A stretch of 64,000 nucleotides of DNA, from the NCBI RefSeq assembly GCF_003664255.1, contig NZ_RCCV01000001.1, positions 1,178,001 to 1,242,000 of the forward strand, read 5' to 3'. Below are positions 1-27,461 of this stretch, piece after piece (position 1 is the first letter of the stretch; each line of letters starts with the position of its first letter). Under the pieces are notes generated by a model. It was given only the letters and a program-made list of their open reading frames with translations, did not search any database and was not told the DNA's origin. The DNA is from Micromonospora sp. M71_S20. GTDB taxonomy: Bacteria > Actinomycetota > Actinomycetes > Mycobacteriales > Micromonosporaceae. A program made the translations under genes and the position numbers.

Positions 1-1928
1 CGGGCACGGGCCGCGCCGGCGATCCAGGAGGTCGGCTCCTGGACGGTGTACAACCGCAGCGAGCCGGCGGGGGTACGGGCGAGGTAGGCCACGTTCGCAC
101 CGTTGGCGTTGACGAAGCTGAACGCGGTCGGATCGGTGGCGTAGGTCTCGAACGCGTCCTGGGCCGGGATGAAGGCGCCCCAGGTGCCGCTGCCCTGCGC
201 CGTCTCGGCGGCGTAGTGGATGTAGCCGTCGGTGCCACGCACGTAGACGCCGATGCGGCCCGTGACCGGGCTCAGCAACGCGCTCGGCGCGCCCGCCGGA
301 ACGACACCGGTGCCGCCGACCGGCGTCCACGTCCCGGTGAAGGTGCCGTCGACACGGCGTTCGGTGGCCGCGATCCGGCCGACGGAGTTGCGGGAGAAGA
401 TCCGCAGCCGGTAGCCGGGCATCACCACCACGGCCGGGGTGCCGGTGAAACCGCTGCCGCCGAGGCTGGTCCACGCCCCCAGCGTGCCGCCCGTGTAGAG
501 GGCCGCCTGCAACGTGCCGGCGCTGTCCGCGACGACGACCAGGGCGCTCGCGTTGGCCAGCGGCACCGCCACCGGGGTGCCGGTCAGGCCGCTGCCACCG
601 AGCTTGCGCCAGGCCAGCAGGTCCGCGTGCGCCGGGTCCTGCCGCCGGGCCCACAGGGCGCCGCCCGCGTCCACCGCGAACACGACCTCACGCTGGTCGG
701 AGAGGCGCGCCACGGCGGGGTTGGTGGCCATCCGGCCGCCCAGGTCGGCCCAACCGCCCCAGCCGGGGCTGCCGGCGGCCGACTGGGTACGGGTCCAGAC
801 GTCGCTGTTGATGTTGCGAGCCGTGATCCGGGTGAGGTTCTGGGTGTTCTCCGACACCGCCGGCACGCCGCTGAAGCCCTCGCTGCCGGAGACCGCGGTC
901 AGTTGCAGCGAGCTGAAGTTGTCCGGGCTCATCCGGCCGTGCAGCAGCCGGCCGATGTTGTCAGTGTGCGCGAGCTCGATGCTGTTGGAGTTGGCCTGCG
1001 TCACGCTCGCCGCCGCGTACTGGGCCACCGGCACCGCCGGCCGGGCCGGGACGTGCGAGGCGGTCAGCGTGCAGGCGTTGGTGATGGCCGCGACGTTGCT
1101 GAAGCTCTGCCAGCCGGAGGTGCTGATGGTCCGGCGCAGGACCACCCAGGTGTTGTTGTCCTCGCGGAAGCGGTACTGCGCCATGAGCCCGCTGGCCTCG
1201 ATGCCGAACAGGGTGTCCCCGCCGGCCGAGACGACGCCCTTGGTGAACACGTTCCAGCCCGTGCCGAGCGACTGGTGGTAGTCGATCCACCGCTGGCTGT
1301 CCGCGTCGTACCGGTAGCGGTAGAGCCGGCCGTCGGTGGCGTCCCGGGCGAACAGCACGCCCTGGCCGGCGGCGACGATGAGGTTGAACCGGCCCCACCC
1401 CGTGTCGAGCAGGCGATCCGAGAAGGCCCAGGCGCCGGCCGCCTCGTCGTAGCGGTAGGTGCGCAGCCTGCCCAGCCCGTCGACGGCGTAGAAGTCGCCC
1501 CGCTCGTCAACGGTGATCTTGTTCCGGGCGCTGGCGCTCGCGAACTGGGTGAAGCCGGTGCTGATCCGCTGGCCTTCGCTGCCGTTGATCTTCTCCCAGC
1601 CGCTGCTCGTCCAGCGGTAGCGGTACAGCCCGTTCGCGTTGATGCCGTAGACCCGCCCACCCGGGCCACCGATGACCCGGCCGTAGGTCTGCCAGCCGTT
1701 GCCGATCTGGCTGCGGGCCGAGAAGCTCAGGCTCGTGCTGCCGGGCGAATTGACCGGGTAACGCCAGAGCCTGCCGGTGGTGTCGGCGGCGAAGAACGAC
1801 GTCTGGGCGGCGCAGCTCACCGTGTCGGCGGCGTACGCGGGCGTCGGCGCGACCACCGCCAGCAGCGCCGCGGCCAGCGCCGCGACCTGCGCGGCGGCGA
1901 ATCTACCGCGCCATCGTGACCGATTCAT
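1..1928 (-). CDS. Secreted tachylectin-like / beta-propeller protein (3' end outside the window)
   Basis: Reads leftward from the ATG at 1926-1928 and runs off the left edge without a stop, so about 642 residues are visible and the C-terminus is missing. GGAAAGG lies about 7 bases upstream of the ATG. The N-terminus (MNRSRWRGRF then an Ala/Leu-rich stretch ending PAYA-AD) is a clear Sec signal peptide. Residues ~45-270 are short repeats of the type GRLWRYP, NGLYRYRW, GRLRTYRYD and GRLYRYRYD, as in tachylectin-2-like propellers. From ~310 a second block (HTDNIGRLLHG, WTRTQSA, FAVDAGGALW, GRIAATERRVDG) closely matches the C-terminal half of the next gene (2086-4458), so the two share a duplicated propeller. 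Probably an exported carbohydrate-binding or surface protein. No catalytic motif seen; ligand unknown. Confidence 0.8.
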   Translation of the reverse strand, partial: MNRSRWRGRFAAAQVAALAAALLAVVAPTPAYAADTVSCAAQTSFFAADTTGRLWRYPVNSPGSTSLSFSARSQIGNGWQTYGRVIGGPGGRVYGINANGLYRYRWTSSGWEKINGSEGQRISTGFTQFASASARNKITVDERGDFYAVDGLGRLRTYRYDEAAGAWAFSDRLLDTGWGRFNLIVAAGQGVLFARDATDGRLYRYRYDADSQRWIDYHQSLGTGWNVFTKGVVSAGGDTLFGIEASGLMAQYRFREDNNTWVVLRRTISTSGWQSFSNVAAITNACTLTASHVPARPAVPVAQYAAASVTQANSNSIELAHTDNIGRLLHGRMSPDNFSSLQLTAVSGSEGFSGVPAVSENTQNLTRITARNINSDVWTRTQSAAGSPGWGGWADLGGRMATNPAVARLSDQREVVFAVDAGGALWARRQDPAHADLLAWRKLGGSGLTGTPVAVPLANASALVVVADSAGTLQAALYTGGTLGAWTSLGGSGFTGTPAVVVMPGYRLRIFSRNSVGRIAATERRVDGTFTGTWTPVGGTGVVPAGAPSALLSPVTGRIGVYVRGTDGYIHYAAETAQGSGTWGAFIPAQDAFETYATDPTAFSFVNANGANVAYLARTPAGSLRLYTVQEPTSWIAGAARA

Positions 1929-14583: not shown

Positions 14584-14624
14584 ATTGCTGGTGCGCCGCC
14601 AGGGACTCGAACCCCGAACCCGCG
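14584..14624. repeat. Left att site: 41-bp copy of the tRNA-Lys 3' end
   Basis: Identical over 41 bases to 24316-24356; the flanking bases differ on both sides. It contains the T-arm, the acceptor 3' strand and the CCA of tRNA-Lys plus five trailing bases, but no anticodon arm, so it is a tRNA fragment. This is the usual signature of site-specific integration at a tRNA 3' end. Confidence 0.85.
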
Positions 14625-14730
14625 AGGTCCAGCAGGGCGGTCGGGCACCGCCCGGCATGCCTGAGGGTTTGGTTGCGGGTCGACCCCACAGGTCGATGCA
14701 GGTGGCGTAGGCAGGCCGGCCGGCCGTCGG

Positions 14731-17700
14731 TCAACAGGGCGATCCGGCACCGACCGGGTCGAGCTCCTCCCGGTCGACCTCGGTCGCCCCGCCGTGTGCC
14801 CGGCACACCTGTTCGTGCCAACTGAGGGGATCGGCGCTGACGCGTCCCCACCCGGCATTCTCGTAGGACACGAGCAGCTCCCCGCCCTTCGGGGAGAGCT
14901 GCTCGGCGGAACCCGCCACCGGCAGGACGACCTGTGCCGCTCCCTTGCCACGTAGCCTGTCCATGAACGTCGCGGGCTCGGTGCGCTGCACCACGAGGCC
15001 CGCCCCGGTGGACAGCGCGATGCGGCCCGGCATCGCCAACCAGTGCGGCTTGGTCCCGTTCACCTCGAAGCGTTGGGCCTCTCGGCCGCCGTCCGTGCTC
15101 TGCAGAAGTAGCGGGCCCTCGCTGTAGGTGATCGCCAGGCGGCTCCCGTCCGGGTGCAGGGCCAGGCCGTAGGCCGACCGCCCCCGATCGTCGGCGAGCG
15201 GCTGCCAGGCGCCTTCTCGGCGGCCGGTGGCGAGGCTCCAGGTCTCGATGACGTTGTCCGGTCCCGTCAGGACGAACAACACCGGCCGCGTCGGATGGGG
15301 CACCGTGAGGACCCGACTGTCCGCGATGCGGAACGGCGCACCGCGTGGCGTCCCGGTGCGGGCATCCCACACCGAGGTCGTTCCATTGCAGACGACCACC
15401 AGTGTCGCCCCGGAGTACGCCCAGCTCAGTGAGGGTAGGTGACCGGACAGCGCGGTCCTGGCGGCGCATTGCGGCACGGCGATCGTCGCCAGTCGCCGCA
15501 TCGTCCGGGTCTCCCACAGCGTGAGCGAGCCAGGTGCGGTCCCTGGGGTGGCCACCAGGGTGCCGTCGCCGTTGAAGGCGAGTGAGTTGTGCAACTCCCA
15601 ACCGGTGGTCCAGCCCGGCGTCACCCGCTCGGTGCTCGCTGCCCGTCGCCGGCCGGTGCCTCTGTCCCACGCGCTCAGCGACCCGTCCTGTCCCTGCACC
15701 ACGACGAACGTGTCCGTCGGGTCGTACGCCGCAGCCCGGGCGGCGGCCAGCGCGAAGTCGACAGAGTCGACCGCGGGAAGCTCCAGCACCGCGATCCCGC
15801 CGGGACCGTTCACGGTCAACACGCCGCTGCCATCCGGGGTGGCTTGCAGCCGGAGCAGGGAGTCGGGCCCGTCAAAGTAGCTGGAGGGTGCGGGGAACGA
15901 GGCGACCTGACGGCGGGCGCGATGATCCCAGATCTCGACAGCCTCGTCCAGTAGGCGCAAGCGGTAGCCGTCCTCCTCGAACGGCCCGTTCTCGAGAAGG
16001 GCGGTGAAGCCTCGGGCCAGATCCACCGCGGCGTAGGCGCAGTGGCCCCGGTCCGCCGATCGCGGTACGTCGGCGAGCAAGGGCCGCTCACGGCTCGTCT
16101 CGAGGTTCAGCAGCAGATAGTCCACCCGTTGGACCGCGCCACCGAGCCCCTTGCGCGGACGGCACAGCACGAGCTCGGGTCGGTCCGGAAGGGAGCCGAC
16201 GACCTGGGTGCCGGCTGCCATCGGAACCACCGGCCCTCGGGACGGCCGGAACAGTCCGTGACGGATGCTGTTCTTGTCGTCGTACGTGACGACGCCGAGG
16301 CGGCCGTCCGGACCGAGGCGGAGCGACGCACCGTGCCGAGACTGTGGCTTCACCGGCAGGCGGGACCGCTCGCCCCGGTCGGCGCCGGTGGCAGTGTCGA
16401 TCACCCCGGCGATGTCGCCCACGACGTATCCCAGGCTGGTGCCGGTGTGGTCGAGGGCGAGCTGAACCGGTCGGTCGGTGAAGAAATCCGCCACCGGCCG
16501 GGCCAGCGGACGCCGGGCCACCGGCTTCCCGTTGGTCGCGTCCCACAAGGTCAGGACGTCGCCGGTCAGGGTCGCGACGGTGCGCCCGTCGCCGCTGATG
16601 GCAGCGGCCTTGGCCCTCGTGGGCAGGACGACGGCCCGGGGCGGATGGCCGGGGGTCAGGGTGTCCAGCCGCCACACCTCGACTCCGCCCCCGCCGCCGT
16701 CATAGGCCAGTTGGGCCTCCTGGTTGGCGCTGGTGGTGAGCATCTCGTGGCCGGAACGCCAGCTTCGCGCAGCCGGCGACACCGACCGTACGTACCGGTA
16801 GCTGCGGTAGGCCTCCGCCAGAGCTTGCCGGGTCCTGGGTGTGTCCGCCCGGGTGAACGCGTCAGCCGCCACCAGCGCGCCGGTACGCCCGTCCCGGGTG
16901 TACGACGCGCGTTCCAGAAGGCCGTGGGCCGCCGCGACGGCAGCCTGCTGCTTGCTCGTCCGGTCCCGCCACCACCACAGGCCGGTGGAGGCGACCACGC
17001 CGGACAGCAGCACCAGGACGACCGTGAGAACCGCGGCGGTCACCATCCGGGCGGTGCGGCGTAGGCGGCTGCTCGCCGAGACGAACTCCCGCTCCGGCAC
17101 GCTCAGGTCGTCCTGATGCACGTTCATCAGCGCCTCGGCCCGGCGTAGCTCACTGCCTTCGAGCAACGCGGGTCGGTCGTCGGCGCCGCCGGCCCAGGCG
17201 AGGACCCGGTGGCGCACGTCGCTGCGCCACCGGAGCAGCTCCCGCGATTCGGACAGCCACCCGGCCAGGCGGGGCCACTGGGCCATCAGGGCGTCGTGGG
17301 TGAATTCCACTGTCTCGTTGCCGTCCACCGCGACGCGTAACACCAGCATCCGGGTGGTGGCCAGCACCTGGGCCAGCTCCCACTGGGTCGCGTCCAGCTC
17401 GTCCCGGTGGGCGATGCGGCGGGCGTGTCCACCGTCCTCGAGCGGCAGGGCCAGGTGCAGAGCGAGACGTCTCGTCTGCTCGCGCTCCTGCGGACCGAGG
17501 TCACGGCTCCACACCTCGTCCAGGTGCTGGGCGATCGGGCCAGCGCCCTGCTGACTCTGCTGGTATGCCTCGTGGGTGAGCAGTCCGTCGGCGGTCTGCC
17601 GTTCCCACAGGTACGTCAGGGTGGCCTGGAGTACCGGAAGACAGTACGGCTGGTCGCGAAGATCGGCGATGATCCGCTCCCCCAGTGCCGGCTCGTATCG

Positions 17701-19107
17701 CACCGTCCCGGCGGCGCGCACCGGCTCGGTCACGACCCGGTGCAGTTCCTCGGTGTCCATGGGGGGCACGTCGATGACAGTGGTCGTCACACGGGTGAGC
17801 CCTTCCACGGCAGCGGAGCTGTCACCGTCCGAGGACGTGCCGGTGAAGTCGGCCAGCACATCGGTGCGAGAGGCGATGACCAGCCGGACGTCCGGCGGTC
17901 GCTGGGACGCGCCGACCTCGGCCAGCCGCACCAGCATGGCGAGAAAGCGCCGGGCGATGGTCGGCTCCGCCGCCGCCAACTCCTCGAACTGGTCGACGAT
18001 GAGGACCAGGCAGCGGTACTGGAGTCGGTCGAGCAGCCCGTGGACGTAATCCTCGGGCGGCGCGTCCCTGAGGAGCGCGGCGACTTTTCCCTCCGCCTCC
18101 AGCGCTTCCGCCGGCTCCCGTTGGGGGGCGACCAGTCGCTCCATCGCCGACGCGAGCGCCAGCCATGGATCGCTGCGGGCCGCCGGGCGAACCACGACCG
18201 GAAGATACCCGTCCCGCCTGCGTAGGGAGGGCAGGATGCCCGCGTGCAGCAGTGACGTCTTGCCGGCTCCGGACGCGCCGCTCACTATGCAGACGCGACC
18301 GGCCACGATGGCCGCAACGGTCCGGTCGATCAAGCGTTCGCGTCCGTGGAAGTTGCCGGCATCGGATTCATCGAACGGTGTGAGCATCCGGAACGGACAG
18401 GCGGCGCGAACCCGGTCGGCCAGAAGTGGCCATGCGGTGAGCACCGTGTCAGCAGGCAGAGCGAATCCCTCGACCGCCACACCCCGATGTCGCCGTACCG
18501 CGCGCACCAGGCCCACAACCTGGCCACGGTGGCGGTCCCAGAGCGGCGTGCCGCTGAACCCAGGCTCCACCCGCGGCGCGTCCGCGGTGGCGTCGGGTGC
18601 GAGTTGTAGCCAGCCGTGCCGGACGACACCCCGAATCTCGCCGACGACCCAGGTGCCGATGCCTACCGTGTCCCGCGCGGAGCTGCCGTAGGCCACGAAT
18701 CCGTGGCCAATGACCCCGGCCGAGCGAGCCAACGGTGTGGGATGGGCGCCCTCGGGCAGGGCGCCGTACAGTCGCAGTCCCGCCACGTCGCCTGATTCGT
18801 CTTCGGCGATCGGCTGCCAGATCTCGACCCGAGCGGTGAGAATACGGTCCTTGGCAAGGAGCGGGAACTCCAGGAGAACCGGGGCGTCAGGCACCGAGGC
18901 CGACGCCTCGGGAAACCGTTCCGGCAGCCCCAATGCTCGAGCTACGACATGAGCGCACGTCACCACCTCGCGGGGACCGACCAGCAGACCGAGTCCTACG
19001 CCGTTCCTGTCCGCGTCGAGGATACGGACGATCGACGCACGCAGCGGATACGCGGAAACACCGTCGAGCGTGGGCAGGCGATCTTGCTCTGATGGGGACC
19101 GGCTCAC
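14731..19107 (-). CDS. Trypsin-like protease / STAND NTPase / TM / WD40-like propeller conflict protein
   Basis: 1,458 residues from a GTG at 19105-19107 that overlaps the TGA of the upstream Trypco1 gene (GTGA), so the two are probably translationally coupled. Residues 1-230 are a trypsin-like domain with a complete triad: His53 in TCAHVV, Asp107 in SGDVAGL, Ser185 in PGFSGTPLW. At ~245-260 FDESDAGNFHGRE introduces a STAND-type NTPase, with Walker A GASGAGKTS at 277-285 and Walker B LIVDQFEEL ending at 377. A helical region runs to ~685, then one membrane segment (~688-713) ending LWWWRD. The remaining ~740 residues are a WD40-like propeller. In this class the propeller is thought to sense a ligand, the NTPase to act as a switch and the protease to be the effector. 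The membrane segment would place NTPase and propeller on opposite faces. Confidence 0.9.
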   Translation of the reverse strand: MSRSPSEQDRLPTLDGVSAYPLRASIVRILDADRNGVGLGLLVGPREVVTCAHVVARALGLPERFPEASASVPDAPVLLEFPLLAKDRILTARVEIWQPIAEDESGDVAGLRLYGALPEGAHPTPLARSAGVIGHGFVAYGSSARDTVGIGTWVVGEIRGVVRHGWLQLAPDATADAPRVEPGFSGTPLWDRHRGQVVGLVRAVRRHRGVAVEGFALPADTVLTAWPLLADRVRAACPFRMLTPFDESDAGNFHGRERLIDRTVAAIVAGRVCIVSGASGAGKTSLLHAGILPSLRRRDGYLPVVVRPAARSDPWLALASAMERLVAPQREPAEALEAEGKVAALLRDAPPEDYVHGLLDRLQYRCLVLIVDQFEELAAAEPTIARRFLAMLVRLAEVGASQRPPDVRLVIASRTDVLADFTGTSSDGDSSAAVEGLTRVTTTVIDVPPMDTEELHRVVTEPVRAAGTVRYEPALGERIIADLRDQPYCLPVLQATLTYLWERQTADGLLTHEAYQQSQQGAGPIAQHLDEVWSRDLGPQEREQTRRLALHLALPLEDGGHARRIAHRDELDATQWELAQVLATTRMLVLRVAVDGNETVEFTHDALMAQWPRLAGWLSESRELLRWRSDVRHRVLAWAGGADDRPALLEGSELRRAEALMNVHQDDLSVPEREFVSASSRLRRTARMVTAAVLTVVLVLLSGVVASTGLWWWRDRTSKQQAAVAAAHGLLERASYTRDGRTGALVAADAFTRADTPRTRQALAEAYRSYRYVRSVSPAARSWRSGHEMLTTSANQEAQLAYDGGGGGVEVWRLDTLTPGHPPRAVVLPTRAKAAAISGDGRTVATLTGDVLTLWDATNGKPVARRPLARPVADFFTDRPVQLALDHTGTSLGYVVGDIAGVIDTATGADRGERSRLPVKPQSRHGASLRLGPDGRLGVVTYDDKNSIRHGLFRPSRGPVVPMAAGTQVVGSLPDRPELVLCRPRKGLGGAVQRVDYLLLNLETSRERPLLADVPRSADRGHCAYAAVDLARGFTALLENGPFEEDGYRLRLLDEAVEIWDHRARRQVASFPAPSSYFDGPDSLLRLQATPDGSGVLTVNGPGGIAVLELPAVDSVDFALAAARAAAYDPTDTFVVVQGQDGSLSAWDRGTGRRRAASTERVTPGWTTGWELHNSLAFNGDGTLVATPGTAPGSLTLWETRTMRRLATIAVPQCAARTALSGHLPSLSWAYSGATLVVVCNGTTSVWDARTGTPRGAPFRIADSRVLTVPHPTRPVLFVLTGPDNVIETWSLATGRREGAWQPLADDRGRSAYGLALHPDGSRLAITYSEGPLLLQSTDGGREAQRFEVNGTKPHWLAMPGRIALSTGAGLVVQRTEPATFMDRLRGKGAAQVVLPVAGSAEQLSPKGGELLVSYENAGWGRVSADPLSWHEQVCRAHGGATEVDREELDPVGAGSPC

Positions 19108-19454
19108 TCGTCGTCAGCCGATCCCTTCGGCGTGACCCCGCTACGTTGCCACTCGAAGAGGACCTTCAGCTGTCCCTCGACTCCGGTCTCGGCCAACACC
19201 AGCTTGCCCTTGGCAGTCACCTTGACACCCAACTCGATGGCCACCCGCTCGGGCGGGTGGGCCTGGTTCCATGCCTGCCGGGCCACCCCGGCGGCCATCG
19301 TGCGGAATCGGGCGAAGGACTCCTCGAATGAATCGGTCACGCGACCTACGACGTCGCTTGCTCGACCTGCTGAAACAACTCCTTCCACCTGCTCGGTCAC
19401 TTCAGCGAGCACGACCGAGCCGTCGGGCAGGGGTACTTCAACATAGAACGCCAC
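19104..19454 (-). CDS. Trypco1 (CU044_2847-type) trypsin-co-occurring protein
   Basis: 116 residues from a GTG at 19452-19454, chosen because GGAGGG lies 10 bases upstream and the conserved domain starts here (AFYVEVPLPDGS). The frame stays open upstream to ATG 19610, but that extension shows no domain features. The second half, VAIELGVKVTAKGKLVLAE followed by TGVEGQLKVLFEW, is the hallmark of the small Trypco1 family, known to sit beside trypsin-STAND proteins. The gene ends inside the start of its protease-STAND neighbour. Likely role: a partner or substrate of the protease in a conflict system; this is inferred from association, not shown by the sequence. Confidence 0.8.
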   Translation of the reverse strand: MAFYVEVPLPDGSVVLAEVTEQVEGVVSAGRASDVVGRVTDSFEESFARFRTMAAGVARQAWNQAHPPERVAIELGVKVTAKGKLVLAETGVEGQLKVLFEWQRSGVTPKGSADDE

Positions 19455-20083
19455 TTGATCAGATCCCTCCGATGACCACCGAGTGTCCGAAGCTAGCATC
19501 GTCGACGGACGCAAGAATCCGAGAGGCCGCCCGGATCTTTCCGGGTCGTAGGCCCTGCGGCGGAACTTGCCCACCCCCTCCCAGGTGCGTGGTCGCAATG
19601 CGAGAGTCACCGTCCGAAAGCCGGGCAGCTTCTGGAAATGACCGCCGCAAGCCGGAGGTCACAGCCGGGTCAGCTGAGGCCGAGCCCAGACCGCACCGGT
19701 AATCGTTCGGTCAGTCGCCAGCGTGTGCCCGGGGCACAGCAGTTGCTACGACGAGGCGTAGGCCTCTGTCGCGACGACAGCCGCCGTACGGCCGCGCGGT
19801 CATTCATGTCCTGATTACCCCGCCGGACATCAACCGCTCACAGCCATTCCGATCGCCCATCACCCAACGTGGGTGCCCGTCGCCGCGGACGGCCACCAGG
19901 ATCATCTACACCGACATCGGATGCCGGATGGACTGCCGAATGGGGCGCCTACGGACCCGTCGAGTGCCCGCGCCCTCCTATCGTGGTCTTGGGCCGGATT
20001 CTGGAGATCACTGTTCAGTCATTCAACCGAAGAGACGAGCGCAATAACCCCTGCAAAGCACTTGGCGGGTCTGTAGTTGACCT
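19455..20083. other. 629 bp without a supportable gene
   Basis: Lies upstream of the Trypco1-STAND pair, so it should hold their promoter, but I cannot pick one out. Short open frames exist on both strands without a ribosome-binding site or recognisable domain. A plus-strand stretch near 19885-19965 (SDAGWTAEWGAYGPV) faintly recalls the N-terminus of an IS5-type transposase and may be an insertion-sequence scrap; this is a guess. Confidence 0.5.
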
Positions 20084-20270
20084 CACGTCGCAGGCTGACC
20101 GAGCGCGACCTCACTGTCGATGAGAGCTGGCGTGGTAGGGCGAACTCCATGCCGTCGCAGTCGCCGTGCTTGAGGGCTGTCTGACCACTCGGGGCCGGCG
20201 TTGGCGAACGGTGCGCCGGATCGGCGACACCGGTAGCCGGCTTTGGCTGCTCTACGGGGACGGATGACAT
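20084..20270. repeat. Island-internal direct repeat, copy 1
   Basis: Imperfect direct repeat of 21685-21877, starting CACGTCGC and ending CTCTACGGGGACGGA. Differences are scattered substitutions and small indels. The two copies enclose the VOC remnant and the BASS transporter, so recombination between them could delete about 1.6 kb. Origin unknown; an IS-derived fragment is possible. Confidence 0.7.
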
Positions 20271-20443
20271 CGGTGAAGCAGTTCCAGATCGCCTTCGACT
20301 GCGCCGACCCGGAGCGCGTCGCCCGTTTCTGGTGGAGGTCCTGGGGTACGTCGTACCGCCGCCCTCGAAGGGGCTTCCCAGTTCGGAAGAGTTCGCGCGC
20401 GCTCCCGACCGATCGTCAGGGCAACGAGTTCTGCCTCGACTGA
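20264..20443 (+). pseudogene. Decayed VOC (glyoxalase-like) protein
   Basis: ATG at 20264 begins TSVKQFQIAFDCADPERV then ARFW, the typical start of actinobacterial VOC/glyoxalase-like proteins. After ARFW (~20330) the reading continues only in another frame (EVLGYVVPPPSKGLPS). The last residues DRQGNEFCLD before the stop correspond to the family's C-terminal PEGNEFC motif in the original frame. The whole is ~60 residues against ~120-140 for the family, so one frameshift and an internal deletion have removed most of the fold. It starts inside the end of repeat copy 1. Confidence 0.7.
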
Positions 20444-20476
20444 GCGGCCCAAACGACCACCTCGCCGGTGTCCGGC

Positions 20477-21367
20477 TCACGCGGTCCGGACCCTGCCGGC
20501 CTCGACCGGGTTACGTCCCCGGCTGACCAGGTAGCCGAAGACGGCGGCGGTGAAGAACATGACGATGCCGTAGACGGCGGCCGGGACCGCGATCTCGGTG
20601 CTGTTCAGCAACGCCGGGCTGATCGCGATAGTGATGGCCAACGTGCTGTTGTGGATACCGACCTCCATGCCGGCCGCGATCGACTCGCGCCGACCGACCC
20701 CGACCAGCCTCGGCACGCCGTACCCGACCAGCAGGCTGATCACGTTGAAGGCCAGCACCACCGCGCCGACCGCGAGGAAGTAGTCGGCGAGATTGGCCCG
20801 TTCCTTGAGCACCGCCCCGAGAATCACCGCGACCAGCACCACCACCGAGAGGATCTTCACCGGCCGGCCGAGTCGGTCGGCGAACCGGGGGAAGCGCGAC
20901 CGCAGGGCCATTCCGAGGGCCACCGGCACCAGCACGATCGCGAAGACCTGGAGCACCTTGCCGAATTGGAGCCCGATCGGCGCCGCGTCGCCCAGGAAGT
21001 GATCCGCCGACAAGTTCACCACCACGGGCAGGGTGAAGACGGCGAGTACCGAGTTGACCGCGGTGAGCGTGACGTTGACGGCGACGTGGCCGCCGAAGAG
21101 ATGGCTGTAGAGGTTGGCGGTGGTCCCGCCGGGCGAGGCGGCGAGCAGCATCATGCCGACGGCCAGCTCGGGCCTGAGCCCGAAGAGTAGGACCAGACCG
21201 AAGCAGAGCGCCGGCAGCAGCAGCACCTGGCAGCCGAGGGCGACGAGCATCAGCCTCGGGTACGCCGCCACCCGCCGAAAGTCACCGATGGTGAGGCCCA
21301 GCCCGAGGCCGAGCATGACGATGCCGAGCGCGACCGGCAACCCGACCGTCATCAACCAGGAGTCCAT
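20477..21367 (-). CDS. BASS-family (bile acid:sodium symporter-like) transporter
   Basis: 296 residues from ATG 21365-21367, chosen because the first membrane helix (WLMTVGLPVALGIVMLG) starts right after it. ATG 21401-21403 would add 12 residues; neither has a strong ribosome-binding site. About nine hydrophobic helices run through the protein. Motifs typical of BASS carriers include LLAASPGGTTANLYSHLFGG (~90-110) and MEVGIHNSTLAI (~240), the two crossover regions that bind sodium and substrate. Such proteins import organic anions with sodium; bacterial substrates are mostly undefined and none can be read here. It lies between the two internal repeats and seems to be transcribed alone. Confidence 0.85.
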   Translation of the reverse strand: MDSWLMTVGLPVALGIVMLGLGLGLTIGDFRRVAAYPRLMLVALGCQVLLLPALCFGLVLLFGLRPELAVGMMLLAASPGGTTANLYSHLFGGHVAVNVTLTAVNSVLAVFTLPVVVNLSADHFLGDAAPIGLQFGKVLQVFAIVLVPVALGMALRSRFPRFADRLGRPVKILSVVVLVAVILGAVLKERANLADYFLAVGAVVLAFNVISLLVGYGVPRLVGVGRRESIAAGMEVGIHNSTLAITIAISPALLNSTEIAVPAAVYGIVMFFTAAVFGYLVSRGRNPVEAGRVRTA

Positions 21368-21684
21368 TCGCGGATTGTGCTGGTCGAAGCGGCCTGTCGA
21401 CATCGTCCGTATCGCTGGTTCTCGATAGCACCCCGAGCGGTGCAGCGCGCCCGGCGGTGCGTCGGGGTTCACGGTCTCCGAGCCGAGCCGGTTCCACCGG
21501 TCGGCCAGCCGGCGAGCCGGTAGCGGCGCCGGGTGAGGCAACCCTCTCCGCAGCGCCTCGACCGGTACGCCGCCCGACCCGAGTCACGGCCTCCCTGGAG
21601 CCGCGACGAGATCAGAGAAGTTGTTTCAGCAGCCCGGAGAACTCGCTCATCACCACGGTCCGGCCCTGCTGCATCGGGTCGATC

Positions 21685-21877
21685 CACGTCGCGGGCTGAC
21701 CGGGCGCGACTTCACTGTCATTGAGAGCTGGCTCATGCGGGCGTGGTAGGGCGAGCTCTATGCCGTCGCAGTCGCCGTGCTTGACGGGTTGTCTGACCAC
21801 TCGGGACCGACGTTGACGAACGGTGCGCCGGAACGGCGACACCGGTAGCCGGCTTGGCTGCTCTACGGGGACGGAAC
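21685..21877. repeat. Island-internal direct repeat, copy 2
   Basis: Partner of 20084-20270, about 190 bp in the same orientation. Its right end overlaps the last codons of the kinase gene (stop at 21863-21865), so the gene's C-terminus is written in repeat sequence. Confidence 0.7.
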
Positions 21878-22431
21878 GCTCGGAAGCAGGTCGTCGTCGC
21901 GTCCGGTCTGGGGTAGCCCGGCGGCAGCGGCGAGGGCCTCGACGGCGTCGACCAGGGTGGTGGTCTCCGGTAGGACGAGTTCGCCTGGCCAGCCCAGGAC
22001 GTCATGGGCGGCGTACCAGCCGCTCATGTGCTCGGCGATGAACTCAGTGGCCTGCGGGCGGGTGAGGTGCCGGCGCAGGGTCTCGGCCAGGGACACGTCG
22101 AGGTAGCAGAACAGGGACCGCCCTCGGTGGCCGTCCCGCAGTGAGGTCAGCATGCTTCGGTAGCGGCTGCTGTGCATGATGCCCTCCAACACGGCGTGAT
22201 AGCCGTGGTCCAGCGCGAACCGAACGGTCTGCCCGATCAACGCCGGTGCCGCACCGCCGGGTTTGTCCCGCTCGCGCAGCAGGATGCGGCGCAGGTAGTC
22301 CTGCTCGACCAGGGCGCAGCCCCGGCCGTGCCGGCGTCGCAGCTCGCGGGCGATGCTGCTCTTACCCGAGCCGGAGTTGCCCGGATGCAGACGAGGATCG
22401 TGTCCGGGCTGCCAGTGGGTTCAGCGAGCAC
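21863..22431 (-). pseudogene. P-loop kinase (AAA_33/zeta-like), frameshifted at the Walker A motif
   Basis: Begins at a GTG (22429-22431) with GGAGG just upstream and reads LAEPTGSPDTILVCIR. At ~22379-22385 the frame breaks. In the neighbouring frame the protein continues GNSGSGKSSIARELRRRHG (Walker A), then LVEQDYLRRILLRE, a lid-like region (VLEGIMHSSRYRSML, FCYLDVSLAETLRRH) and a stop at 21863. Restoring one base gives ~190 residues resembling small P-loop phosphotransferases related to zeta toxins and chloramphenicol phosphotransferase. The lesion falls exactly before the P-loop, so as written no active enzyme is made. A sequencing error cannot be excluded. It starts 15 bp after the pentapeptide gene. 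Confidence 0.75.
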
Positions 22432-22446
22432 GACGCCTCCTCGGCT

Positions 22447-23109
22447 TCAGTTGTTGCGGACGGTGAGGTCGAGGGCGGCGACGGTCAGCTGAGTGAGATC
22501 AGGAAGTTGGTCCTCGCCGACGGTGGCACCGCGCAGGTTGTCCAGCGGCGTCTTGAGGCCGTGAAGGCGGCTGCCCCGCAGATCGGTGCCGTCGAGGTGG
22601 CAGGAGTCCAGTTCCAGGCCGGCGAGGTCACATGACCACAGCGCGATGCGCGGTAGTCGGCATGAAGACCACGCGCCGTTGGTGAGAGTGCAGTCGGTGA
22701 AGGCGACCGAGCCGGCGGTGGTGACGCGGTGGAAGGTGGCGTAGTCGAAGCGGCAGCCGTCGAACAGAACGTCGTTGAGGCGTACGTCGGTGAATCTGGT
22801 GCCGGTGAACCGGGAACCGGTGATCGCACACCGCTCGATGGTGATGCCGGTCAGGGTCGCACCGGAGAAGTCGGTGCGGGTGATCTCACAGCCGTAGAGG
22901 CTGCCGGCTTCCCAAGTGCTCTCGCTCAGGTCCACGCCGGTGATCAGGCTGCTGCGGATGCTGACGTCCTCAAGGTGCGAGCCGTGCCACGCCGCACCCT
23001 CGACGAGGGCCTCGGTGAGGCCGCCGTCCAGGTCCGACGTGGTGTCGAGGTCGTCCGGTTCGAGGTCCGGCAGCAGGACCTTCACGTCGCCGATCGTGGT
23101 GGTACGCAT
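22447..23109 (-). CDS. Pentapeptide-repeat protein
   Basis: 220 residues from ATG 23107-23109. From ~40 to ~195 it consists of five-residue units with a central hydrophobic or aromatic residue (for example LYGCE, TDFSG, SRFTG, TRFTD, CRFDY, CDLAG, CHLDG, TDLRG, SRLHG), which fold into a right-handed quadrilateral beta-helix. No signal peptide or membrane segment, so cytosolic. Some family members mimic DNA and protect gyrase, but most are uncharacterised; nothing here selects a role. Lies 60 bp downstream of the RiPP-like peptide gene and 15 bp upstream of the kinase, so probably one transcript. Confidence 0.85.
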   Translation of the reverse strand: MRTTTIGDVKVLLPDLEPDDLDTTSDLDGGLTEALVEGAAWHGSHLEDVSIRSSLITGVDLSESTWEAGSLYGCEITRTDFSGATLTGITIERCAITGSRFTGTRFTDVRLNDVLFDGCRFDYATFHRVTTAGSVAFTDCTLTNGAWSSCRLPRIALWSCDLAGLELDSCHLDGTDLRGSRLHGLKTPLDNLRGATVGEDQLPDLTQLTVAALDLTVRNN

Positions 23110-23169
23110 GTGTCCTCAACCTGTGTGGGCGCGGGGTGGGCACGCCACCCCACGCGTCCCGTCGCGGGG

Positions 23170-23340
23170 CTATTTCTTCTTGTTCCAGTTGTCCCAGCCG
23201 GGTCGACTGTCGAACCGACCCTTGTTGTCCCAGGTAGGACGGTTGTCAAACTTTGCCGCGTCGATCGACGCTACCGACCGCTCCGGGTCCACGCCGAGGC
23301 GGGCGAGTTGCAGTTGATCATCAAAAAGCCACGTCGACAT
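23170..23340 (-). CDS. Multicore cyclophane-type RiPP precursor candidate (AmcA-like)
   Basis: 56 residues from ATG 23338-23340 (a GTG at 23368-23370 would add ten). Residues 1-30 look like a leader (MSTWLFDDQLQLARLGVDPE, then RSVASIDAAK). The C-terminal core has aromatic residues exactly six apart, each opening an aromatic-Asp-Asn/Ser triplet: FDN at 31, WDN at 37, FDS at 43, WDN at 49; then a WNK tail. Positions 31-42 and 43-54 form a 12-residue tandem unit. There is no Cys. Such triplets are what radical-SAM enzymes crosslink into three-residue cyclophanes, and the layout resembles the actinobacterial multiple-cyclophane (Amc) family. No radical-SAM gene with a CxxxCxxC motif occurs in the window, so the maturase is elsewhere or lost. 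Its neighbours are a pentapeptide protein and a frameshifted unknown. Confidence 0.7.
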   Translation of the reverse strand: MSTWLFDDQLQLARLGVDPERSVASIDAAKFDNRPTWDNKGRFDSRPGWDNWNKKK

Positions 23341-23417
23341 CGAAACCGGTAGCCCGCCGGGCACCGCCACCCGCCCGCCATCAGGTCAACACCGAGACAT
23401 GCCGAACCCGCCCGCCG

Positions 23418-24027
23418 TCACCCTCCGTCACGCATTGCGAAGATGCCAACGGGGAGCACCGACTCGACGATGGTCGCGGTCCCGACCACCGGCACCTGTT
23501 CGTGCATCGTGATCACGTCGCCGGCCGCCAGACGTCGCCACCGTTGTGGACTCAGCGGAGCCAGGCGAATCACTGCCCTCCCGCCGGGCTGAAGATCCGG
23601 CTGTGCCTCGACCCACAGCCGCGCGACGTACAGGTCCGAGTCGCCCGCCGCCGTCACATCGCCGATGTCCCACAGCGGACGGAGGCGCCCGTCGCCAGGA
23701 ATGGGGGGTCCGCCTGCCGCCGGCGACGTCCGGATCCACGAGCTGAAGGTCCGCGCGCATCACCCCGTGAACGACCTCGAAGCGGCGCCAGTGGCACCAC
23801 CGCTCGGTCCGGGACTGCCACATCATCCTGGCCGCCTCGGCGAGCAGATCCCAGAACGCGGTCTCGGAGCGGTACGCGTCGCCCAGTTCCACGAGAATGC
23901 CCAACGCGACCTCCCACTCGTCGTGGTCGAGGTACTCGTCGGCATCGGCCACCGTCGTGCCGGCCGCACCCGTCGCAACCGCGGGCACGTGACGGGCAGC
24001 CCGACGAAGAAGCTCGGGAACATCCAC
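23418..24027 (-). pseudogene. Unknown protein, frameshifted in a C6 run
   Basis: Starts at GTG 24025-24027 with GGGAGG about 9 bases upstream (DVPELLRRAARHVP). Continues in one frame through DEWEVALGILVELGDAYRSE and WCHWRRFEVVHGVMRADLQL to VAGGRRT. At the six-C run near 23700 the frame must change by one base to continue GDGRLRPLWDIGDVTAAGDS and end ITMHEQVPVVGTATIVESVL, then PVGIFAMRDGG. Corrected length is ~203 residues. The C-terminal part (GGRAVIRLAPLSPQRW, GDVITMHE, VGTATIV) resembles the beta-barrel of elongation-factor domains 2/3. The N-terminal half is not recognised. It is first in the probable run leading to the RiPP-like peptide. Either an indel at a homopolymer or a sequencing error. 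Confidence 0.65.
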
Positions 24028-24274
24028 GGCATGGATCCTCCCGCAGGATCCATTGGACACCACGCCCCCGGAAGGGGCCAGAGCCAGCTATCGGCCATGG
24101 AAACCCCACGGACGGCCCACATCTCGGCCGGCATCCCGGCTGCCGGCAACGCGCACCGCCCCACCGGCTGGATAGCTTGTGTCCACGATCACGGCACCGT
24201 GTCCATGGCCTACCGGAACCGTCCAACCGCTCCCGAGCACCCGGCGAGCACCCAGCCATCGCCACGGACACGAA

Positions 24275-24315
24275 AAAGGCTCCGGCCAGGTGGAAACCAC
24301 CAGGCCAGAGCCTTT
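24275..24315 (-). terminator. Strong intrinsic terminator next to tRNA-Lys, inside the island
   Basis: A near-perfect ~19-bp stem (AAAGGCTC, GGCC and GGTGG arms with two mismatches), a TTT loop, and TTTTT following on the minus strand. It starts directly after the right att repeat, so the island supplies the terminator for tRNA-Lys and insulates its own genes from tRNA transcription. Confidence 0.8.
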
Positions 24316-24356
24316 ATTGCTGGTGCGCCGCCAGGGACTCGAACCCCGAACCCGCG
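24316..24356. repeat. Right att site: 41-bp repeat overlapping tRNA-Lys
   Basis: Identical to 14584-14624. Bases 24321-24356 are the 3' part of the tRNA (T-arm, acceptor, CCA); 24316-24320 lie beyond it. Insertion here leaves the tRNA intact. Confidence 0.85.
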
Positions 24357-24396
24357 GATTAAGAGTCCGCTGCTCTGCCAGTTGAGCTAGCGGCGC
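24321..24396 (-). tRNA. tRNA-Lys (anticodon CTT)
   Basis: 76 nt with CCA encoded. The acceptor GCGCCGC pairs with GCGGCGC. The D-arm reads TAGCTCAACTGGCAGAGCA. The anticodon stem GCGGA/TCCGC encloses the loop CTCTTAA, giving CTT. The T-arm is GGGTTCGAGTCCC-like. It serves as the integration site of the island to its left. Confidence 0.95.
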
Positions 24397-24583
24397 TCGC
24401 TGGCAACGGGGAGAACATTAGCACGCCCCCCGAGGGGGGTTCCAATCCGATCCCCGGCTCCCCCCTTCGGCCGAGCTTACCGGGCATTCAGGGGCAAAAT
24501 CACCAGGCGGACGACGACAGGGGGCGGACATCAGGCGACCATGCGGCACGATGTGCGCCAGGTACGCGAGAACAGAGGTGGGG

Positions 24584-25861
24584 ATGGGCATGTTCGCGCG
24601 GGCCGGGGCGATGGTGGGCGCCCTCGGCCTGGTGGCGTCGCTGGCTCTGACGGGCTGCGACGCGGAGCAGAAGAAGCAGGCGGAGTTCGTCGGCGGCACC
24701 GCGCCGGCCACGTCCGCCACACCGGGGGCGGCGGGCACGACGGCCGACCCTGGCACGACGGCCGCGCCGAGCGGTCCGCCGCTGACGGTGAGCCCGGCCG
24801 ACGGGGGGAAGAACCGGCCGGTCAGCTCCGAGATCAGCGCCGAGGTGCCCGGCGGCGGGAAGGTGTCCAGCGTCACGCTGACCACCGCCAACGGCGGTCA
24901 GGTCGAGGGGCGCCTGCGCGCCGACGGCTCGTCCTGGGTGCCCTCGAAGCCGCTCAAGTACGGCACCCGTTACACGGCCACGGTCACCGCCACCGGCCCC
25001 GACGGGGTGACCAGCCAGGGCACGAGCACCTTCACGACGATGGCGAAGCCCAAGTCGATGATCAGCTCCGGCCTCTACCTCTTCGACGACAAGACCTACG
25101 GCGTGGCGATGCCGGTGGTCACCGAGTTCCACCCGGGGATCCCGAAGAAGGACCGGGCGGCGGTGCAGAAGCGCATGTTCGTGCAGACCGATCCGCCGCA
25201 GCCGGGCGCCTGGCACTGGGTGGAGAACGGCACCCAGGCCTACTACCGCGCGCCGGAGTACTGGAAGCCCGGCACCACGCTCACCGTCCGGATCGCGCTG
25301 GCCGGCATCCCGCTGAGCAACGGCCGCTACGGCAACGTCGACCGTACGGCGACCGCGAAGATCGGCCGGGCGTTCGAGATGAAGGTGGACAACGCCACCA
25401 AGAAGATGACGGTGTACGAGGACGGCCAGGTGGTCCGTACCCTGCCGGTGAGCCTGGGCAAGAAGAAGACCCCCTCCTCCAGCGGCACGATGGTCGTGAT
25501 GGAGAAGAAGGAGTCCACGGTCTTCGACACCCGCGACGATCCGGACCCGGCGAACCGCTACGTCACGGAGATCGACTTCGCCCAGCGGCTCACCTGGGGC
25601 GGCGAGTACATCCACGCGGCGCCCTGGTCGGAGCACGTGCAGGGTCGGCAGAACGTCTCGCACGGCTGCGTCAACGTCTCGATGGCGAACGCCCGGTGGC
25701 TGTTCGGGAAGACCAAGGTGGGTGACCCGATCACCATCAAGGGCACCGAGCGCAGGCTGGCGCCGGGCAACGGCTGGACGGCGTGGAGCCAGAGCTGGTC
25801 CGACTTCGTCAAGGGCAGCGCCGTGCCGGTGCCGGAGGCGGGCGAGGGGTCGGCCTTCTGA
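24584..25861 (+). CDS. L,D-transpeptidase lipoprotein (Ig-like domains plus YkuD)
   Basis: 425 residues. ATG 24584 has GAGGTGGGG just upstream; ATG 24590 is possible. Residues 1-25 are a lipoprotein signal with lipobox ALTGC (Cys25). A Thr/Ala/Pro linker follows, then two Ig-like domains (~65-150, YGTRYTATVTATGPDG; and ~155-260). The YkuD catalytic domain runs ~265-400, with the signature SHGCVNVSMANARWLF at 359-374 and nucleophile Cys362. These enzymes make 3-3 peptidoglycan crosslinks outside the membrane. Close paralogue of the next gene (26166-27461). A strong hairpin follows the stop, so it is transcribed separately. Confidence 0.93.
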   Translation: MGMFARAGAMVGALGLVASLALTGCDAEQKKQAEFVGGTAPATSATPGAAGTTADPGTTAAPSGPPLTVSPADGGKNRPVSSEISAEVPGGGKVSSVTLTTANGGQVEGRLRADGSSWVPSKPLKYGTRYTATVTATGPDGVTSQGTSTFTTMAKPKSMISSGLYLFDDKTYGVAMPVVTEFHPGIPKKDRAAVQKRMFVQTDPPQPGAWHWVENGTQAYYRAPEYWKPGTTLTVRIALAGIPLSNGRYGNVDRTATAKIGRAFEMKVDNATKKMTVYEDGQVVRTLPVSLGKKKTPSSSGTMVVMEKKESTVFDTRDDPDPANRYVTEIDFAQRLTWGGEYIHAAPWSEHVQGRQNVSHGCVNVSMANARWLFGKTKVGDPITIKGTERRLAPGNGWTAWSQSWSDFVKGSAVPVPEAGEGSAF

Positions 25862-25881
25862 GGCACCCGTACCGACGATCC

Positions 25882-25916
25882 GGCGACCGGCCCGCACCCC
25901 GCGCGGGCCGGTCGCC
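25882..25916 (+). terminator. Intrinsic terminator after the first L,D-transpeptidase
   Basis: GGCGACCGGCCCG pairs perfectly with CGGGCCGGTCGCC around a short C-rich loop, 20 bases past the stop, followed by GTCTTCGT. Confidence 0.75.
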
Positions 25917-26094
25917 GTCTTCGTGGCCCGGCCGCGACGCCGTCCGGGCCCGCGATGCCGGCGATGCCCCCAGGAGCCCGCGCCCGCGCCGCCGGGCCCG
26001 TGCGGCGGGCAGGGAAAGGCGAGCGGGCCTCGGCAAAGCCCCGGGTCTTATCAACATTCGGACATCTCGCGCTGCGTGTTTCGGTTCACCTTGC

Positions 26095-26120
26095 GGAACG
26101 GGTACCTGTGTCGGTGCGTC
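26095..26120 (+). promoter_or_regulatory. Possible ECF-type promoter of the second L,D-transpeptidase
   Basis: GGAAC at 26095-26099 and CGTC at 26117-26120, 17 bases apart, about 45 bases before the start codon. The pair resembles the GGAAC / CGTC promoters used by envelope-stress ECF sigma factors. Short motifs like this are frequent, so this is tentative. The remainder of 25917-26165 shows nothing else. Confidence 0.3.
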
Positions 26121-26165
26121 AGTGAGGGACGATGGGCAACCGGGGACCACGACTGTGAGGAAATC

Positions 26166-27461
26166 ATGCGAGCTGTCCAGGACCAGCTGATCCGGCGCGG
26201 AGGCGACCGGCGGGGTGGCCGACGCCGCGGCTTCGCGGCGGCGGTGCTCGCCGTGACGCTCGCGCTGGCCTCCGCCTGCACCGACGGTGGCGGGGGCAAG
26301 CCCTCGGGCTGGCAGAACGGCGACGACCAGCCCGCCGCGCCGAAGGCGGCGGCCACCATCGTCGAGCCCAAGGCCGACGCGAAGGACGTGCCCGCGTCCA
26401 CCGGCATCACCTTCACGGCGACGGAGGCCGAGGAGACCAGCGTCGAGCTGAAGGACTCCGCCGGCGCGGCCGTCGAGGGCGAGCTGGCGGCCGACGGGAA
26501 GAGCTGGCTGCCCGTCGGCGCGCTGAAGTACGGCGAGACGTACACCGCGACGGTGACCGCGACCGGCGACGACGGCCGGCCGGCCACGGCGACCAGCACC
26601 TTCACCACCATGGCGAAGCCCGGCAAGCAGGTCCGGATCAGCAGCTTCCTGGGTGACGACCAGGTCGTCGGCGTCGGCATGCCGCTGATCGTGAAGTTCA
26701 GCCGGGCCGTCCCGGAGGACTACCGCGACGACGTGCAGAGCCGGATGAAGGTCACCTCCGTACCGGCGCAGGAGGGCATCTGGCACTGGGTCAGCCCGAC
26801 CGAGATCCGCTACCGCCCGAAGGAGTTCTGGCAGGCGAACAGCACGGTCTCCTACCGGGTCCAGGCTGGCGGCCTGCCGCTGGGCGACGGCTGGTACGGC
26901 CGGGCGGACCTCAGCGTCGGCATCAAGGTCGGCCCGGCGGTGGTCATGACGGTGGACAACAAGACCAAGCGGATGACCGTCACGAAGGACGGCTCTGTGA
27001 TCAAGACCATCCCGGTCAGCCTCGGCAAGAAGAGCACCCCGTCCTCCAGCGGCACCATGGTGGTCATCGAGAAGCTGCGCAAGACGGTCTTCGACACCTT
27101 CGAGGAGCTGGGCCCCGAGGAGGGCTACCGCACCAAGATCGACTACGCCCAGCGGCTGACCTGGGGCGGCGAGTTCATCCACGCCGCGCCCTGGTCGGAG
27201 GGACAGCAGGGCCGGGTGAACGTCTCGCACGGCTGCGTGAACGTCTCCATGGCCAACGGCGCCTGGCTGTTCGCCAACACCCGCGTCGGCGACCCGATCA
27301 CCGTCAAGGGCACGGAGCGGAAGCTCCAGAACGGCAACGGCTGGACCGACTGGAACATGAGCTGGGAGCAGTACGTCAAGGGCAGCGCCCTGCCGTACGA
27401 GCCGCCGACCGAGGCCGCCCCGGAGGAGACCGGCGAGCCCACGGCCACCCCGACCGCCTGA
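26166..27461 (+). CDS. L,D-transpeptidase lipoprotein, second copy
   Basis: 431 residues from ATG 26166 with GAGGAAA six bases upstream. The Arg-rich N-terminus, hydrophobic stretch and lipobox LASAC (Cys38) mark a lipoprotein. Two Ig-like domains (~60-150, KYGETYTATVTATGDDG; ~155-265) precede the YkuD domain, with SHGCVNVSMANGAWLF and nucleophile Cys357. The C-terminal ~25 residues are Pro/Glu/Thr-rich. It matches the preceding gene through most of its length (VSLGKK.TPSSSGTMVV, YAQRLTWGGEF), so the pair arose by tandem duplication. Function: 3-3 crosslinking of peptidoglycan. It ends at a terminator shared with the convergent tRNA-His. Confidence 0.93.
   Translation: MRAVQDQLIRRGGDRRGGRRRGFAAAVLAVTLALASACTDGGGGKPSGWQNGDDQPAAPKAAATIVEPKADAKDVPASTGITFTATEAEETSVELKDSAGAAVEGELAADGKSWLPVGALKYGETYTATVTATGDDGRPATATSTFTTMAKPGKQVRISSFLGDDQVVGVGMPLIVKFSRAVPEDYRDDVQSRMKVTSVPAQEGIWHWVSPTEIRYRPKEFWQANSTVSYRVQAGGLPLGDGWYGRADLSVGIKVGPAVVMTVDNKTKRMTVTKDGSVIKTIPVSLGKKSTPSSSGTMVVIEKLRKTVFDTFEELGPEEGYRTKIDYAQRLTWGGEFIHAAPWSEGQQGRVNVSHGCVNVSMANGAWLFANTRVGDPITVKGTERKLQNGNGWTDWNMSWEQYVKGSALPYEPPTEAAPEETGEPTATPTA

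What the first reader, a model, noticed from the sequence alone, without database searches (positions are those of the whole stretch)
23170..23340. Orphan multicore RiPP precursor with aromatic-Asp-Asn/Ser motifs every six residues
The 56-residue peptide ends in four triplets FDN, WDN, FDS, WDN whose aromatic residues fall at 31, 37, 43 and 49, exactly six apart, within a 12-residue tandem unit; there is no Cys. Three-residue cyclophane crosslinks by radical-SAM enzymes are known at aromatic-x-Asn/Asp/Ser motifs, and the layout resembles the multiple-cyclophane (Amc) group. No radical-SAM gene is in the window, and the peptide rides on a tRNA island between a frameshifted unknown and a pentapeptide protein. 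A precursor matured in trans, or a new cluster type, are both possible.
Basis: partly seen in the sequence, partly recalled or inferred. Interest (0 to 1): 0.82.

Follow-up and report, generated by a model that had tools for sequence, protein, structure and literature searches.

The report
Broken cyclophane-peptide gene at deletion scar
The odd repeated peptide is the leftover of a known type of bacterial peptide-product gene whose start and partner enzyme were apparently cut away by a deletion, while a neighbouring gene that looks like a self-protection protein survived and hints at what the intact relatives' peptide might attack.

Summary
The peptide is real and correctly read, but it is not a new cluster type and most likely not a live orphan. 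It belongs to the curated family NF041721, "multiple cyclophane-containing RiPP AmcA" (61.1 bits, cut-off 40). In 18 of 30 other amcA loci compared, a full radical-SAM gene amcB (NF041718 type) lies directly upstream on the same strand. The window lacks it. Against intact locus L056 the window skips about 5.1 kb at ~23312: amcB, amcA's ribosome-binding site and its first 14 codons are missing. The genome's only AmcB over cut-off is a 41% paralogue 1.18 Mb away with its own precursor. Where amcB is full, amcA keeps its start in 18 of 18 loci; where amcB is gone, in 4 of 11.

The neighbour deserves attention. A pentapeptide-repeat protein follows amcA in 31 of 31 loci, and a distant homologue lies convergent to amcA in the three loci found outside the genus. 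It is acidic and folds like EfsQnr, AlbG and MfpA. I infer self-immunity, which would make gyrase or topoisomerase IV the candidate target of intact AMC peptides. This is untested.

The parts
23170..23310 (-). native part of amcA: codons 15-60 of 60 plus stop, with the four aromatic-Asp-Asn/Ser triplets (FDN, WDN, FDS, WDN) and a possible fifth (WNK)
   Evidence: NF041721 61.1 bits; tblastn to L056 AmcA residues 15-60, 93%; alignment A1
23311..23340 (-). foreign 5' end of the reading frame (first 10 codons); replaces the leader start and ribosome-binding site found in relatives
   Evidence: no SD-type motif found before the window start
23311..23313 (.). deletion junction: left and right of it match L056 at places about 5.1 kb apart
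   Evidence: blastn: window 25862-23313 matches L056 relative -7671..-5156 (83%); window 23311-22303 matches -30..981 (91%)
22447..23109 (-). pentapeptide-repeat protein, 220 aa, pI 4.48, intact; proposed immunity protein of the lost AMC locus
   Evidence: Pfam PF13599/PF13576/PF00805; downstream of amcA in 31 of 31 loci; fold match to EfsQnr, AlbG, MfpA; charge -16
21863..22431 (-). P-loop kinase-like gene of the same island, frameshifted here
   Evidence: NF005252 matched from profile position 65 on; a single 189-aa frame in 9 of the 31 loci scanned
23430..24259 (-). unknown gene in at least two frames (homologue of a 275-aa open frame in L056); the junction lies just past its end
   Evidence: tblastn pieces 23448-23705, 23704-24132, 24065-24259
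24321..24396 (-). tRNA-Lys (CTT) at one end of the island
   Evidence: ARAGORN
24316..24356 (+). 41-bp exact direct repeat reaching into the tRNA-Lys; att-like
   Evidence: second copy at 14584-14624
14584..14624 (+). second copy of the 41-bp att-like repeat, proposed far end of the island

Best explanation
The open reading frame is the 3' remnant of an amcA gene (multiple-cyclophane RiPP precursor, type 1). In relatives the locus reads: a 115-aa protein, amcB (radical-SAM maturase), amcA, pentapeptide-repeat protein, all on one strand. There AmcB is expected to link each Phe or Trp ring to the beta carbon of the residue two places on (Asn or Ser), giving four or five small rings in a row. In the window a deletion of about 5.1 kb relative to L056 took amcB, the upstream genes, amcA's ribosome-binding site and its first 14 codons, and joined unrelated sequence to the rest; this copy is therefore most likely not made or matured. 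The pentapeptide gene stayed intact. Shown by computation: family membership, locus order, junction, lost start, absence of an amcB orthologue. Inferred: the cross-links (family knowledge), loss of function of this copy, immunity role of the pentapeptide protein.
For: AmcA model over cut-off. Full amcB directly upstream in 18 of 30 other loci, none in the window; AmcB of L056 scores 554 bits against cut-off 425. Clean break of homology at 23311-23313 with both sides matching L056 about 5.1 kb apart. Relatives carry AAGGAGG-type sites and a 60-codon frame; the window has neither. Other loci show different breaks in the same stretch, for example amcB codon 45 joined into amcA codon 36 in L069. 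amcA start kept in 18 of 18 loci with full amcB against 4 of 11 without (Fisher p 0.0002; adding the two dropped loci gives p 0.0004 and 0.0002).
Against: The core itself shows no decay: every core residue of the window copy is also seen in intact loci, so the loss is recent or the core is still of use. An alternative ATG or GTG leaves an open frame. Four loci without amcB keep a whole amcA with its start. The Fisher test treats related genomes as independent. L056 is not the direct ancestor, so the deletion size and exact ends are approximate, and the left-side match near the junction is loose.
Confidence: 0.88

Rival explanations
1. Live orphan precursor matured in trans by the genome's other AmcB at C1:2382335-2383402.
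For: That enzyme passes the same AmcB model (514 bits, cut-off 425), and a 39-44% homologue is found in 91 of 91 genus genomes. The window core is undamaged.
Against: It has its own precursor of another type beside it (NF041722, AmcA_3a, 121 bits), with an unlike leader and core. The window peptide lost leader codons 1-14 and its ribosome-binding site. amcA is damaged in 7 of 11 loci without the cognate amcB although all those genomes have the paralogue.
Confidence: 0.06
2. The junction is an assembly error and the organism holds the full locus.
For: The genome is in 5 contigs; reads were not available.
Against: No amcB orthologue, whole or part, was found elsewhere in the genome. Both flanks continue as in relatives. 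Several other genomes show comparable losses.
Confidence: 0.03
3. A new kind of precursor or cluster without a radical-SAM enzyme.
For: No radical-SAM gene in the window.
Against: Family and maturase are already curated, and 18 of 30 other loci have both side by side.
Confidence: 0.01

Closest known systems
AmcA type 1 (NCBIfam NF041721, phane_AmcA_1) with AmcB (NF041718)
   Same: Profile score over cut-off; same four aromatic triplets six apart; same downstream gene as intact loci in relatives.
   Different: No amcB; ribosome-binding site and first 14 leader codons gone.
AmcA type 3a (NF041722) with AmcB, elsewhere in the same genome next to purM (L038)
   Same: Same enzyme family (514 bits); aromatic-rich C terminus.
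   Different: Different leader and motif layout; no pentapeptide gene nearby (only two in the genome, neither there).
Triceptides made by XncB, OscB, MscB (passages of PMC11002830)
   Same: Trp/Phe linked to the beta carbon of Asn, Asp or Ser two residues on is the expected chemistry.
   Different: AmcB is a separate curated family; GrrM/OscB scores 247 bits on L056 AmcB, below its cut-off of 310. No product was examined here.
Pentapeptide-repeat immunity proteins AlbG, McbG, CysO and the speirobactin protein (passages of PMC9886550, and PMC12406682)
   Different: Sequence far below the Qnr and MfpA cut-offs; no gyrase test; partner product is a radical-SAM RiPP.

Membership tests
AmcA (multiple cyclophane-containing RiPP precursor, NF041721) | score over the curated cut-off | tested here: met
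   61.1 bits against 40
AmcA (multiple cyclophane-containing RiPP precursor, NF041721) | repeated aromatic-x-Asn/Ser triplets with conserved spacing | tested here: met
   28 of 31 loci with whole core, window among them
Working AMC locus | AmcB gene adjacent | tested here: not met
   no amcB piece in the window; 18 of 30 other loci have it full
Working AMC locus | complete leader with ribosome-binding site | tested here: not met
Working AMC locus | cross-linked product | not testable with these tools
   needs mass spectrometry and NMR
Topoisomerase-protecting pentapeptide-repeat proteins (Qnr, MfpA, AlbG) | pentapeptide right-handed quadrilateral helix over nearly the whole length | tested here: met
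Topoisomerase-protecting pentapeptide-repeat proteins (Qnr, MfpA, AlbG) | strong negative charge (DNA mimic) | tested here: met
   pI 4.48, charge -16.1 at pH 7
Topoisomerase-protecting pentapeptide-repeat proteins (Qnr, MfpA, AlbG) | score over the NCBIfam cut-off of Qnr or MfpA | tested here: not met
   37.9 against 240 and 29 against 360; therefore not filed as Qnr or MfpA
Topoisomerase-protecting pentapeptide-repeat proteins (Qnr, MfpA, AlbG) | binds or protects gyrase or topoisomerase IV | not testable with these tools
   needs a supercoiling or cleavage assay

The most novel reading that the evidence does not exclude
Type-1 AMC peptides are gyrase or topoisomerase IV poisons, and the adjoining pentapeptide-repeat protein is their dedicated immunity factor. 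Radical-SAM multi-cyclophane RiPPs would then be a new chemical class of topoisomerase inhibitor. Many Micromonospora, the window strain among them, would be former producers that dropped the peptide genes and kept the immunity: of 91 genus genomes, 18 have a full amcB and all 18 carry the pentapeptide gene (17 of them in one frame), while 30 carry the pentapeptide gene, some only as a fragment, without a full amcB.
Probability: 0.25. Interest if true: 0.75.

Novelty: new member of a known kind. Interest (0 to 1): 0.42.

Why it matters
For annotation, it shows that an apparent orphan RiPP precursor can be a deletion scar, and how comparison with relatives settles this. For biology, the conserved pairing of AMC genes with a Qnr/AlbG-like pentapeptide protein, also seen in Amycolatopsis, Saccharopolyspora and one more non-genus genome in a different gene orientation, gives a concrete and cheap hypothesis for the target of a peptide family for which I saw no reported target in the papers searched (listings, opening lines of abstracts and a few passages only).

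Tried and rejected
New cluster type: rejected. Trans maturation: disfavoured, see rivals. Ancestral short locus later enlarged by insertion in relatives: rejected, because intact loci as diverged as 74% in AmcB share the same order and the same 60-codon frame. Two scripts carried wrong patterns and were redone: (radical-SAM motif), and the core test, which marked every core as broken; only the start/SD column is used. Rows dropped: G014 (amcB split over two frames, amcA start intact) and the second partial copy in G077 are outside the 18-versus-11 comparison; adding them changes p from 0.0002 to 0.0004 (G014 alone) or 0.0002 (both). The state table was entered by hand. In one search the E-value limit was 1e-20, so short amcB remnants can be missed there. 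The claim that the type-3a precursor sits beside the paralogous AmcB was checked in the window's genome only. The pentapeptide-as-immunity argument is weakened by 13 or more genus genomes that carry the pentapeptide gene without any AMC trace, where it may do something else, and by two genomes that keep amcB pieces but no pentapeptide gene (G020, G087). Purifying selection on the pentapeptide gene (window against 15 others, dN/dS 0.14-0.28; the other loci fell out of that script's filter) is seen alike for loci with and without amcB, so it does not by itself show selection after the loss. The fold result also ranks designed solenoids, HetL and a clostridial pentapeptide protein highly. No paper on AmcA or AmcB was seen in the listings; the library lacks most subscription journals.

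Full report
Observation. The reading frame at 23340-23170 (minus) is as described: 56 residues, no Cys, FDN/WDN/FDS/WDN starting at 31, 37, 43 and 49. It passes the NCBIfam model NF041721, 'multiple cyclophane-containing RiPP AmcA', with 61.1 bits against a cut-off of 40. No Pfam family matches at E 1.

Relatives. Among 151 genomes (91 of the window's genus, 60 others) 30 match the model, 27 over its cut-off, all in the genus. A second draw of 298 genomes of the order gave 16 matches, 14 over the cut-off, one of them (G304) outside the genus. A scan of the named genome collection gave 35 loci, 33 from Micromonospora, Salinispora and close kin, one from Amycolatopsis echigonensis and one from Saccharopolyspora spinosa. 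I take the host to be Micromonospora in the broad sense.

Anatomy of the intact locus. I fetched 30 loci from the 29 other genomes. In 18 of 30, a full amcB in one frame ends at or a few bases before the amcA start, same strand. L056 AmcB scores 554 bits on NF041718, cut-off 425. A 115-aa protein lies just upstream of amcB in 18 of 18 such loci (cut short by a contig end in one), and an NsdA-like regulator on the opposite strand in 15 of 18. The pentapeptide protein follows amcA in 31 of 31 loci, window included; in L075 it is in two frames. The core reads F-D-N-R-P-x-W-D-N-x-G-x-F-D-S-R-P-x-W-D-N; the middle Asp of triplet 2 may be Ala or Gly while its third residue, Asn, never varies in 28 whole cores. 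This fits three-residue cyclophane chemistry, in which the ring of residue i is linked to the beta carbon of residue i+2 (passages of PMC11002830). The link itself is inferred, not shown.

The window copy. In blastn against these loci the homology breaks at 23311-23313. In L056, window 25862-23313 matches relative positions -7671 to -5156 at 83%, and window 23311-22303 matches -30 to 981 at 91%; the L056 stretch between, about 5.1 kb, has no counterpart in the window. It holds an HTH protein, a flavoprotein, the NsdA-like regulator, the 115-aa protein, amcB, and amcA's ribosome-binding site and first 14 codons. In the window, codons 1-10 of the frame come from the other side of the junction, and no SD-type motif precedes its start. 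Codons 11-56 equal AmcA 15-60, without any core change that is not also seen in an intact locus, so the event is probably recent.

Other losses. Loci without amcB differ at their breaks: L069 joins amcB codon 45 to amcA codon 36; L060 and L065 keep 29 and 18 C-terminal AmcB residues; L052 keeps 105; L071 joins a tRNA-like end to amcA. The losses are therefore several events, not one. amcA keeps a start with a ribosome-binding site in 18 of 18 loci with full amcB and in 4 of 11 without (p 0.0002), with the caveat that related genomes are not independent.

Maturation in trans. The genome has 18 radical-SAM matches, one over the AmcB cut-off, at C1:2382335-2383402, 1.18 Mb away. It is 41% identical to the type-1 AmcB used as query, lies by purM, and has its own precursor, AmcA_3a (121 bits, cut-off 65). 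A 39-44% match of this kind is present in 91 of 91 genus genomes. It could in principle act on the window peptide, but the truncated leader, the lost ribosome-binding site and the damage to amcA in 7 of 11 amcB-less loci argue against that.

The island. A 41-bp exact repeat of the tRNA-Lys end (24316-24356) recurs at 14584-14624, so the stretch between looks like an element integrated at tRNA-Lys. In L056 a tyrosine recombinase gene lies downstream of the pentapeptide gene. The kinase-like gene and the unknown gene on either side of the remnant are frameshifted in the window, in keeping with decay.

Verdict. The window feature is a decayed member of a known family. Its value lies in the pentapeptide pairing and the testable target that it suggests.

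Noticed in passing
window 14584-24356: A 41-bp exact direct repeat of the tRNA-Lys end bounds about 9.8 kb, as in an integrated element.
   Followed up: partly
L038:672-905 and 874-2007 (G000 C1 about 2382335-2383402): A second, complete-looking AMC pair of type 3a beside purM; the enzyme has a 39-44% homologue in 91 of 91 genus genomes, so it may have a conserved role.
   Followed up: partly
window 21863-22431: P-loop kinase-like gene frameshifted here, a single 189-aa frame in 9 of 31 loci scanned.
   Followed up: partly
window 24551-25861 and 25722-27461: Two similar L,D-transpeptidase-type genes in tandem beside tRNA-Lys and tRNA-His.
   Followed up: no
L071 about 9237-9291: A tRNA 3' end is joined almost directly to an amcA remnant, another sign of tRNA-linked rearrangement.
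   Followed up: no
L056:7749-8096: A 115-aa protein without Pfam or NCBIfam match lies just upstream of amcB in 18 of 18 loci with full amcB; role unknown.
   Followed up: partly
L057:2614-3030: A second, partial pentapeptide gene near the intact AMC locus of G059.
   Followed up: no
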